From positions 62,001 through 126,000 of the forward strand of contig JAHIVW010000003.1 in assembly GCA_018816245.1 (NCBI GenBank): a stretch of 64,000 nt of DNA, given 5' to 3'. The stretch is from Nanobdellota archaeon. Its GTDB lineage: Archaea > Aenigmatarchaeota > Aenigmatarchaeia > QMZP01. Under the pieces are notes generated by a model, which was given only the letters and a program-made list of their open reading frames with translations, did not search any database and was not told the origin of the DNA. The position numbers and the translations under genes are program-made. Below are positions 24,329 through 32,314 of the stretch, one piece after another (position 1 is the stretch's first letter; the number at the start of each line of letters is the position of its first letter).

Positions 24329-24379
24329 GTGTGCATCACAGATTTGGTCTAACAACCAGCTGTGATGCACACCTTTTTT
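24329..24379 (+). terminator. Perfect 13-bp hairpin plus TTTTTT
   Basis: GTGTGCATCACAG (24329-24341) pairs perfectly with CTGTGATGCACAC (24360-24372) around 18 bases, followed by CTTTTTT. The T-run overlaps the first bases of the next tRNA-like gene. Terminator or small RNA. Confidence 0.6.
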
Positions 24380-24450
24380 GGCCGTAGCTCAGTGCAGAGC
24401 GCTACCTAGAGTGGTAGAGGTCAGAGGTTCAATTCCTTTCGGCCCAACCA
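24378..24450 (+). tRNA. Truncated tRNA-like gene
   Basis: The acceptor stem has one mismatch (TTGGCCG against CGGCCCA). The D arm is GCTC/GAGC with only a 6-base loop, the anticodon stem CTACC/GGTAG encloses only six bases (TAGAGT), the T arm is AGAGG-TTCAATT-CCTTT, and A-CCA is encoded. The anticodon identity cannot be assigned. Too regular to be chance, too short for a standard tRNA. Confidence 0.45.
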
Positions 24451-29775: not shown

Positions 29776-30246
29776 TTAAGCTGTTTCGTGGGTAATGTCG
29801 ACAATTACCGCCTCGGTGGCTTCAAGAATCACTTTGGGAGAGATTTTCAGGAGCGTGGTCCTGCTTCCCCCGCCACCGACAACCCACTCATGCTCCAGGA
29901 TCTTCGGGTCAGCGAATGTTCGCAGCTGCTTCTGATGCCCGACTGGTGGCACGCCGCCAACGGAATAGCCAGTGAGCCGGGCAGTCGCTTCCGGTGCACA
30001 GAACGATACTTGTTGCACCCCAGCTGCTGCGCACAGTTTCTTGAAATCCAGTCGTAATGGTCCAGGGATAATGGCAAGCAACGGTTCATTATGTTCATCA
30101 ACTAACACAAGTGTTTTCACATCCTGCGCAGGATCAAACCCTGCCTTTGCGACGTCCTCCACGGTCGCCACTGGCTGGTCCAACTCAAAAATTGTGTGCT
30201 CGATTCCCCGCTCTTTCAAATACAACACCAAACTTCCGGTGTCCAT
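29776..30246 (-). CDS. YbaK/ProX-family aminoacyl-tRNA deacylase
   Basis: A 156-residue YbaK/EbsC-like editing protein. VATVEDVAKAGFDPAQDVKT, LLAIIPGPLRLDFKKL and SVGGVPPVGH are the characteristic elements. It hydrolyses mis-acylated tRNA (often Cys-tRNA-Pro or Ala-tRNA-Pro). ATG 30246 is chosen because it follows the TGA of the upstream gene by one base (TGATATG); a start at 30264 would overlap it. Confidence 0.88.
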   Translation of the reverse strand: MDTGSLVLYLKERGIEHTIFELDQPVATVEDVAKAGFDPAQDVKTLVLVDEHNEPLLAIIPGPLRLDFKKLCAAAGVQQVSFCAPEATARLTGYSVGGVPPVGHQKQLRTFADPKILEHEWVVGGGGSRTTLLKISPKVILEATEAVIVDITHETA

Positions 30247-30247
30247 A

Positions 30248-30886
30248 TCAACCAACAAGCGCACGGATCAGGTCTGGTGTTACTTCATTCAATGATGCAA
30301 CCTGCCGGTCCGCCGCGCTCAAATCAGGATGGTACCGCGGATCAGGAACCCCGATCACTTTCATGCCTGCTTTTCGCGCGCCGCGGACCCCGTTCTGGCT
30401 GTCCTCGATGACCACGCAGGTCGCGGGCGGCACGTGCAGTTTTTCCGCAGTACGCAGGAAGATGTCTGGCGCTGGCTTCCCGTTCTCCACTTCCTCGCCG
30501 GTCACGATGACTGGGAACAGGGACCTCAGGCCGATCGTTTCAAGAATAACCATTGCAACCGAGCTGTGCGTGGTCGTTGCCACGGCAACCGGAAACACCG
30601 CGGCCAGCTGCCGGACGCATGCGATCGCGCCGGGCATGGGCTTGGCTTCATGCTGCGCCCGGTTCCTGACAATGAACCGTTTCCGTTCAACCAGCTCGCT
30701 CACGTTTCCCGGCATCCCTTCCTTTGCCAACAGGGCCCCGAAAAAGACCTCATCAGGCAATCCGTTCCCGTCTTCACTGTACCGGAAGGGAATGTTCAAG
30801 GAGCGTAAGATCACCTGCCGCGCCTCGAGGTGGATGTAGTTCGTATCGGAGAGGACGCCGTCCATGTCGAAGATGACTGCTGTCAT
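30248..30886 (-). CDS. HAD phosphatase (beta-phosphoglucomutase-like)
   Basis: A 212-residue HAD hydrolase with intact motifs: FDMDGVLSDT (motif I), ATTTHSS (II), KPAPDIFL (III) and VIEDSQNGVRGA (IV). The helical cap has the subgroup I fold. Substrates of this group are phosphosugars or nucleotides. It is co-transcribed with the YbaK-like deacylase. A TATA-like TTTATAAAAAT about 25 bases before ATG supports a leaderless start. Confidence 0.9.
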   Translation of the reverse strand: MTAVIFDMDGVLSDTNYIHLEARQVILRSLNIPFRYSEDGNGLPDEVFFGALLAKEGMPGNVSELVERKRFIVRNRAQHEAKPMPGAIACVRQLAAVFPVAVATTTHSSVAMVILETIGLRSLFPVIVTGEEVENGKPAPDIFLRTAEKLHVPPATCVVIEDSQNGVRGARKAGMKVIGVPDPRYHPDLSAADRQVASLNEVTPDLIRALVG

Positions 30887-31576: not shown

Positions 31577-31636
31577 ACCGCTGTATTCACTTCTCGTCAG
31601 AGAATATTATTAAAATAATCAATACTAAATTTGTAT

Positions 31637-32314
31637 ATGGAAATAATACAAGGAATTCGCGGAGAAGCGTATGAAACCGGGTATGATATTCTTCAAGAGA
31701 GGGGAGCTTCTCTCGTTCCTGTATGCCCTGGCAATGGCCATTTTAATGCAAAAACAATTGACGAATTAATCAGAATAGCTTCTGAAAACTTCTCTGTGGT
31801 CATCATTTTCATCCCAGATAAACCAACAGAGCATACCTATCGAGCAATGGGATACACAGACGCAAAAGCCAAGCAAAAAGCCCGTCACCAAGGGAATAAT
31901 CTCAGGAACAATACTATGAGAAGCATTGATAAAATAAGAGAGATTCGAGGGATCACCGTCCCCAAAATCATTAACTGGGTCAATGATGTTGAATCGCAAA
32001 ACACATTCCAAGAGGAACTAAGAAAATTAAAGCAATTATACCATCAAAATGTTGCGTTCCATCAATTAGTTCGAAATGAAACACATTCTGTAATAAAAGA
32101 AAGAACATCAGAGGAGAATGATGTGCAAACCAGAATTGATGAAGGAATTAATTATGTGTTAGAAGAATTAGCATGGTTGACCACAAGCCCATCTCTTCTT
32201 GGGGTTTCCCACCTTGCCTACATCTATCATAAAGAATGGTTTCTTGATGATTTTATTGCAGGAAAATACGATGGGACGAAGAAAGAAAATCTCGGCTTTG
32301 TTATCATTCGTTGA
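31637..32314 (+). CDS. tRNA-dependent cyclodipeptide synthase (CDPS), Cys variant
   Basis: A 225-residue protein matching the CDPS family (AlbC-like). PVCPGNGHFN (residues 28-37) corresponds to the GIS-x-GN-S-Y-F nucleophile loop. GINYVLEELAWLTTSP supplies Y173 and E177 (AlbC Y178/E182), and IYHK supplies Y197-H198, with N33, placing it in the NYH subfamily. A basic helix (KAKQKARHQGNNLR) fits the tRNA-binding helix. CDPSs take two aminoacyl-tRNAs and release a cyclic dipeptide. The catalytic serine position is Cys30. ATG 31637 is supported by an AT-rich TATA box 22-29 bases upstream. AT-rich codon use suggests transfer; no tailoring enzyme is adjacent. Confidence 0.88.
   Translation: MEIIQGIRGEAYETGYDILQERGASLVPVCPGNGHFNAKTIDELIRIASENFSVVIIFIPDKPTEHTYRAMGYTDAKAKQKARHQGNNLRNNTMRSIDKIREIRGITVPKIINWVNDVESQNTFQEELRKLKQLYHQNVAFHQLVRNETHSVIKERTSEENDVQTRIDEGINYVLEELAWLTTSPSLLGVSHLAYIYHKEWFLDDFIAGKYDGTKKENLGFVIIR

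What the first reader, a model, noticed from the sequence alone, without database searches (positions are those of the whole stretch)
31637..32314. Cyclodipeptide synthase in an archaeon, with Cys in place of the catalytic Ser
Sequence shows the CDPS hallmarks: CPGNGHF loop, Y173/E177 in NYVLEE and Y197-H198 (NYH subfamily). Established: CDPSs hijack two aminoacyl-tRNAs using a nucleophilic serine. Here the aligned position is Cys30, so the enzyme would use a thioester or be altered. AT-rich composition and no tailoring enzyme nearby suggest horizontal transfer and a free cyclic dipeptide product.
Basis: partly seen in the sequence, partly recalled or inferred. Interest (0 to 1): 0.8.

Follow-up and report, generated by a model that had tools for sequence, protein, structure and literature searches.

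The report
Cysteine-type cyclodipeptide synthase in an archaeon
A small archaeon carries an enzyme of the family that makes cyclic dipeptides from charged tRNAs, but with a cysteine where nearly all its relatives have the catalytic serine; one related archaeon shares this cysteine and a bacterium has it too, so it looks like a real natural variant and not an error.

Summary
The ORF at 31637-32314 (+) is a genuine cyclodipeptide synthase (CDPS): Pfam CDPS 5.6e-30, TIGR04539 1.2e-36, AlphaFold2 pLDDT 93, best PDB fold matches all CDPSs (TM about 0.8). It is NYH type. Cys30 aligns without gaps to the nucleophilic Ser (AlbC Ser37); Asn33, Tyr173, Glu177, Tyr197 and His198 are kept. The host is an aenigmatarchaeon. 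In 86 of 87 CDPSs collected (mainly by a search accepting only Ser or Cys) the residue is Ser. Unbiased profile searches of over 1,100 archaeal and Patescibacteria genomes gave about 30 CDPS genes, two more with Cys. One (G304, Woesearchaeota-type) is the window protein's sister even with the Cys column masked (99/94), so the residue is inherited, not a sequencing error. That Cys enzyme keeps the divergent Lrp/AsnC-type regulator seen beside its Ser relatives, which argues against a dead enzyme. Engineered S33C BtCDPS is about as active as wild type (PMC8084100), so thioester catalysis is credible. The gene is AT-rich, codon-atypical, absent from 23 family members, with no tailoring enzyme nearby: probably acquired horizontally. 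Activity and product are untested. New variant of a known kind.

The parts
31637..32314 (+). Cyclodipeptide synthase (CDPS, NYH type), 225 aa
31724..31726 (+). Codon TGC for Cys30, at the position of the catalytic nucleophile (AlbC Ser37, BtCDPS Ser33)
31724..31744 (+). Active-site loop CPGNGHF with Asn33 (AlbC Asn40)
32153..32167 (+). Tyr173 and Glu177 (AlbC Tyr178 and Glu182) in YVLEE
32225..32230 (+). Tyr197-His198 (AlbC Tyr202-His203), the YH of the NYH type
31577..31636 (+). AT-rich intergenic stretch (GC 27%) with TATA-like sequence just before the ATG; probable promoter, possibly a leaderless transcript (inference)

Best explanation
This is an active NYH-type cyclodipeptide synthase in which cysteine has replaced serine as the catalytic nucleophile. 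By the mechanism established for AlbC and BtCDPS, the aminoacyl group of a first aminoacyl-tRNA would be transferred to Cys30 as a thioester (an ester in Ser enzymes), the amine of a second aminoacyl-tRNA would attack it to give a dipeptidyl thioester, and Tyr197 would assist cyclization to a free diketopiperazine. The gene was probably acquired from a low-GC DPANN archaeon. Shown here: family, fold, catalytic-residue conservation, Cys at the nucleophile position, sharing of Cys with a sister enzyme, foreign composition. Inferred: activity, thioester, product. The P1 pocket motif LPFPWWLY most resembles published motifs of Pro-, Leu- or Phe/Ile-accommodating enzymes (xGxPWxxF/Y), a weak hint of a Pro- or Leu-containing product.
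For: Family and fold. All other catalytic residues intact. Sister enzyme L099/L111 in G304 also has Cys (LVPLCPGNGYF); the two form a clade at 97 and at 99/94 with the Cys column masked, so the residue has persisted over about 65% sequence divergence. The G304 Cys gene still sits beside the Lrp/AsnC-type regulator that flanks Ser-type relatives (74% identical to the one beside L008). Engineered S33C BtCDPS is similarly active to wild type while S33A is inactive (PMC8084100). Horizontal transfer: GC 38.5% versus 52%, codon correlation 0.30 versus 0.52-0.86 for other genes; no CDPS in the other genomes of the family. Pocket motifs.
Against: No activity data for any natural Cys CDPS. AlbC S37C is reported to be more impaired than BtCDPS S33C (PMC8084100), so Cys is not always tolerated. 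Position 35 (AlbC numbering), Gly in 84 of 87, is Pro in the window enzyme and its sister, which could alter the P1 pocket. The window gene lacks the regulator found beside its Woesearchaeota-type relatives. Only one genome carries the window version.
Confidence: 0.7

Rival explanations
1. The enzyme is a CDPS-derived protein that uses Cys30 thioester chemistry for another outcome, such as aminoacyl transfer to another acceptor, linear dipeptide release, or hydrolysis of aminoacyl-tRNA.
For: A thioester is more reactive to amines and thiols than an ester (general chemistry); P1 position 35 is Pro instead of Gly in both members of the Cys clade; the sister enzyme has Tyr in place of AlbC His203; no tailoring enzyme lies nearby.
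Against: All residues assigned to dipeptide formation and cyclization (Tyr178, Glu182, Tyr202) are kept; engineered Ser-to-Cys BtCDPS still makes cyclo(Leu-Leu) (PMC8084100).
Confidence: 0.15
2. The Cys substitution is a degenerate state: a horizontally acquired gene drifting to inactivity.
For: Foreign composition and absence from the rest of the family; regulator missing; AlbC S37C is impaired (PMC8084100).
Against: Intact full-length ORF with all other catalytic residues; the same Cys in a sister enzyme at about 35% identity that still has its regulator; high-confidence fold.
Confidence: 0.12
3. The TGC codon is a sequencing or assembly error for a Ser codon (AGC or TCC, one base away).
For: The genome is a fragmented assembly (6 contigs, 88% complete) and one substitution would suffice.
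Against: An independent genome (G304) has TGC at the same position in the sister protein and a Patescibacteria genome (G958) has TGT.
Confidence: 0.03

Closest known systems
AlbC, YvmC, Rv2275 and BtCDPS (NYH-type cyclodipeptide synthases)
   Same: Rossmann CDPS fold, N40/Y178/E182/Y202/H203 equivalents, size
   Different: They have Ser as nucleophile; the window protein has Cys; about 16-21% identity in the structural alignments
Engineered BtCDPS S33C and AlbC S37C (PDB 4q24)
   Same: Cys at the same nucleophile position; S33C makes cyclo(Leu-Leu) nearly as well as wild type (PMC8084100)
   Different: Laboratory mutants; the window and its sister are natural and also differ at AlbC position 35 (Pro instead of Gly)
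L008 (Woesearchaeota UBA10204), L009, L010 (Aenigmatarchaeota RIFCSPLOWO2_01_FULL_48_10), L094, L095, L110: archaeal CDPSs
   Same: Nearest clade; 36-43% identity for L008-L010
   Different: All have Ser; four of them (L008, L009, L094, L110) sit beside an Lrp/AsnC-type regulator that the window lacks
L099/L111 CDPS of G304
   Same: Sister in the tree, same Cys, same LVPxCPGNG motif
   Different: His203 replaced by Tyr, a roughly 20-residue insertion before Tyr178, regulator adjacent

Membership tests
Cyclodipeptide synthase (CDPS, PF16715 / TIGR04539) | Match to the family profile above the curated cut-off | tested here: met
   105 bits against 27; 126 against 45
Cyclodipeptide synthase (CDPS, PF16715 / TIGR04539) | CDPS Rossmann fold related to class I TyrRS/TrpRS | tested here: met
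   pLDDT 92.9; the first 47 fold matches are CDPSs, then TyrRS
Cyclodipeptide synthase (CDPS, PF16715 / TIGR04539) | Catalytic nucleophile serine (AlbC Ser37) | tested here: not met
   Cys30 at this position. Gondry et al. 2018 removed sequences lacking this Ser from their survey (PMC5816076). Because Cys is a functional nucleophile in BtCDPS S33C, I call it a variant of the family, not a canonical member.
Cyclodipeptide synthase (CDPS, PF16715 / TIGR04539) | Tyr178, Glu182 and Tyr202 equivalents | tested here: met
   Tyr173, Glu177, Tyr197
NYH subfamily of CDPS | Asn40, Tyr202, His203 | tested here: met
   Asn33, Tyr197, His198
Cyclodipeptide synthase (CDPS, PF16715 / TIGR04539) | Makes a cyclodipeptide from two aminoacyl-tRNAs | not testable with these tools
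   needs an assay

The most novel reading that the evidence does not exclude
A natural lineage of cyclodipeptide synthases has switched from an ester to a thioester acyl-enzyme, at least once in DPANN archaea and perhaps again in Patescibacteria. The archaeal switch is coupled to a Gly-to-Pro change two residues before the nucleophile in the P1 pocket.
Probability: 0.6. Interest if true: 0.6.

Novelty: new variant of a known kind. Interest (0 to 1): 0.52.

Why it matters
The serine nucleophile is treated as a defining residue of the family, and the main published survey discarded sequences without it, so natural Cys enzymes would have been missed. A natural Cys clade gives a direct test of ester versus thioester catalysis in tRNA-dependent peptide synthesis and links it to thioester-based NRPS chemistry. 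It also extends CDPSs to DPANN archaea, where some are paired with what looks like a dedicated Lrp-type regulator.

Tried and rejected
Single-sequence and two-sequence searches of viral contigs found nothing; a wider alignment found one distant viral Ser-type CDPS. No match in phages; only distant bacterial Ser-type CDPSs on plasmids. The genome-contig scan used a pattern with [IVM] before the nucleophile and so could not have found the sister L099 (Leu there). The 86/87 count also says nothing about residues other than Ser or Cys, so I added profile searches without that bias. One clade of all three Cys enzymes (with L116) is neither supported nor rejected (AU p 0.38). A check for an empty site in the family was not conclusive: the DUF2203 neighbour is found in only 4 of 23 relatives and I did not examine those flanks. 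My first AlbC residue table was numbered one too low and was redone; its column count for the Gly35 position stands. Sequencing error was rejected because of the sister enzyme. Papers: no report of a natural Cys CDPS found in the held library, but two of the original AlbC papers are not held.

Full report
WHAT WAS CHECKED. The ORF at 31637-32314 (+) reads 225 aa without interruption. It matches Pfam CDPS (5.6e-30) and TIGR04539 tRNA_cyclodipep (1.2e-36). By sequence the nearest solved structures are YvmC, BtCDPS and AlbC. An AlphaFold2 model built on 48 homologues has mean pLDDT 92.9 and pTM 0.88. Foldseek against the PDB gives CDPS structures for the first 47 ranks (TM about 0.6-0.83), followed by tyrosyl-tRNA synthetases, as expected for this family.

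ACTIVE SITE. Aligned to AlbC, the window protein has Cys30 at Ser37, Asn33 at Asn40, Tyr173 at Tyr178, Glu177 at Glu182, Tyr197 at Tyr202 and His198 at His203. It is therefore of the NYH type with one replacement, at the nucleophile. There is no gap near the loop and no other serine that could take the place; in PDB 4q24 the AlbC residue at this position is an engineered Cys, and the printed alignment pairs the two cysteines (origin of the mutant: PMC5935735).

HOST. The window also holds genes that read as an A-type ATPase operon at about 40-47 kb (read by eye). The CDPS lies between an endonuclease III-type gene and a DUF2203 gene followed by a UbiA prenyltransferase, on a 555 kb contig, so contamination by a stray contig is unlikely.

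HOW RARE IS CYS. Among 87 aligned CDPSs (the window, genome contigs, plasmid and viral loci) 86 have Ser and only the window has Cys. That set was collected mainly with a pattern that allowed only Ser or Cys and excluded Leu before it. Profile searches without this bias covered the window's phylum (2 of 156 genomes with CDPS), the phylum, class and order of the Woesearchaeota-type relatives (the draws overlap) and a Patescibacteria sample (7 of 380), over 1,100 distinct genomes in all. Of about 30 CDPS genes seen, three have Cys: the window, L099 (G304) and L116 (G958). Several of the remaining ones are divergent and their alignment is less sure.

SHARED BY DESCENT. The window and L099 form a clade at 97, and at 99/94 when the Cys column is masked, inside an archaeal group of otherwise Ser enzymes (92/91). 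They are only about 35% identical. Both read LVP(V/L)CPGNG: the position of AlbC Gly35, Gly in 84 of 87 CDPSs, is Pro in both. L116 lies elsewhere on a long branch; the minimum is two changes, but a single Cys clade is not rejected (AU p 0.38). The codons are TGC, TGC and TGT. This makes sequencing error a poor explanation.

IS IT ALIVE. In G304 the Cys gene sits beside a divergently transcribed protein of about 340 aa with two AsnC-type helix-turn-helix stretches. A search of 80 genomes found close relatives of this protein (63-74% identity to the one beside L008) in G304, G157, G567, G199 and G195, and in each case, as in G156 itself, the coordinates place it next to the CDPS; the remaining best matches are 45% or less. 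The Cys enzyme of G304 is thus kept in the same two-gene arrangement as the Ser enzymes, which suggests that it serves the same role. The window genome has no such regulator at E 1e-10.

CHEMISTRY. The accepted mechanism is an aminoacyl-Ser ester, then a dipeptidyl-Ser ester, then cyclization (summarised in PMC5816076). In BtCDPS the S33C mutant is about as active as wild type with aminoacyl-tRNA and gives more product with a minimal ester substrate, while S33A is inactive; AlbC S37C is reported as more impaired (PMC8084100). A natural Cys enzyme working through thioesters is therefore credible but unproven. The P1 motif (LPFPWWLY) resembles those of Pro-, Leu- or Phe/Ile-accommodating enzymes in the Gondry table; I put little weight on this.

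ORIGIN. Gene GC is 38.5% and GC3 33.6% against window GC 51.7%, and the codon correlation is 0.30, the lowest of 14 genes. None of the other family members searched has a CDPS, though most of those genomes are incomplete. The nearest relative by tree is not the CDPS of its own phylum. Horizontal transfer from a low-GC DPANN archaeon is the simplest reading. No gene among the 17 neighbours scanned, from about 22 to 40 kb, is a recognised diketopiperazine tailoring enzyme; four of them matched no family.

JUDGEMENT. A real CDPS with a natural Ser-to-Cys nucleophile change shared with one sister archaeon. New variant of a known kind. Activity and product remain to be shown. The surprise is tempered by the known activity of an engineered S33C enzyme.

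Noticed in passing
L008 3057-4082 (-), L009 4538-5578 (-), L094 331-1365 (-), L111 9134-10147 (+), also G567 and G195: Archaeal CDPS genes are divergently paired with a tandem AsnC/Lrp-type regulator, 63-74% identical to the one beside L008, found at that identity only next to a CDPS in 80 genomes searched. Possibly a dedicated regulator sensing an amino acid or the cyclodipeptide.
   Followed up: partly
L011, L014, L015 (Patescibacteria and other bacterial genomes); ORFs of similar length also in L013, L016-L024, L027, L028: CDPS fused to a C-terminal SBP_bac_3 domain (Pfam 1.5e-19 in L011, also L014 and L015). No paper with these terms together found in the held library.
   Followed up: partly
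L098, L100, L102, L103, L108, L109, L117, L119: A separate, strongly supported branch (100) of divergent DPANN and Patescibacteria CDPS-like proteins with YP in place of YH in most; all have Ser at the nucleophile position.
   Followed up: no
L116 / L120 5382-6239 (+): Patescibacteria CDPS-like protein with Cys at the nucleophile position and YY instead of YH, followed by a Peptidase_S51 gene.
   Followed up: partly
window 29776-30264 (-): YbaK-type aminoacyl-tRNA editing domain gene (PF04073) three genes from the CDPS, on the other strand; no evidence of a link.
   Followed up: no
window 24378-24450: ARAGORN reports a tRNA with an odd four-base anticodon (agag), just before a tRNA-Ala call.
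   Followed up: no
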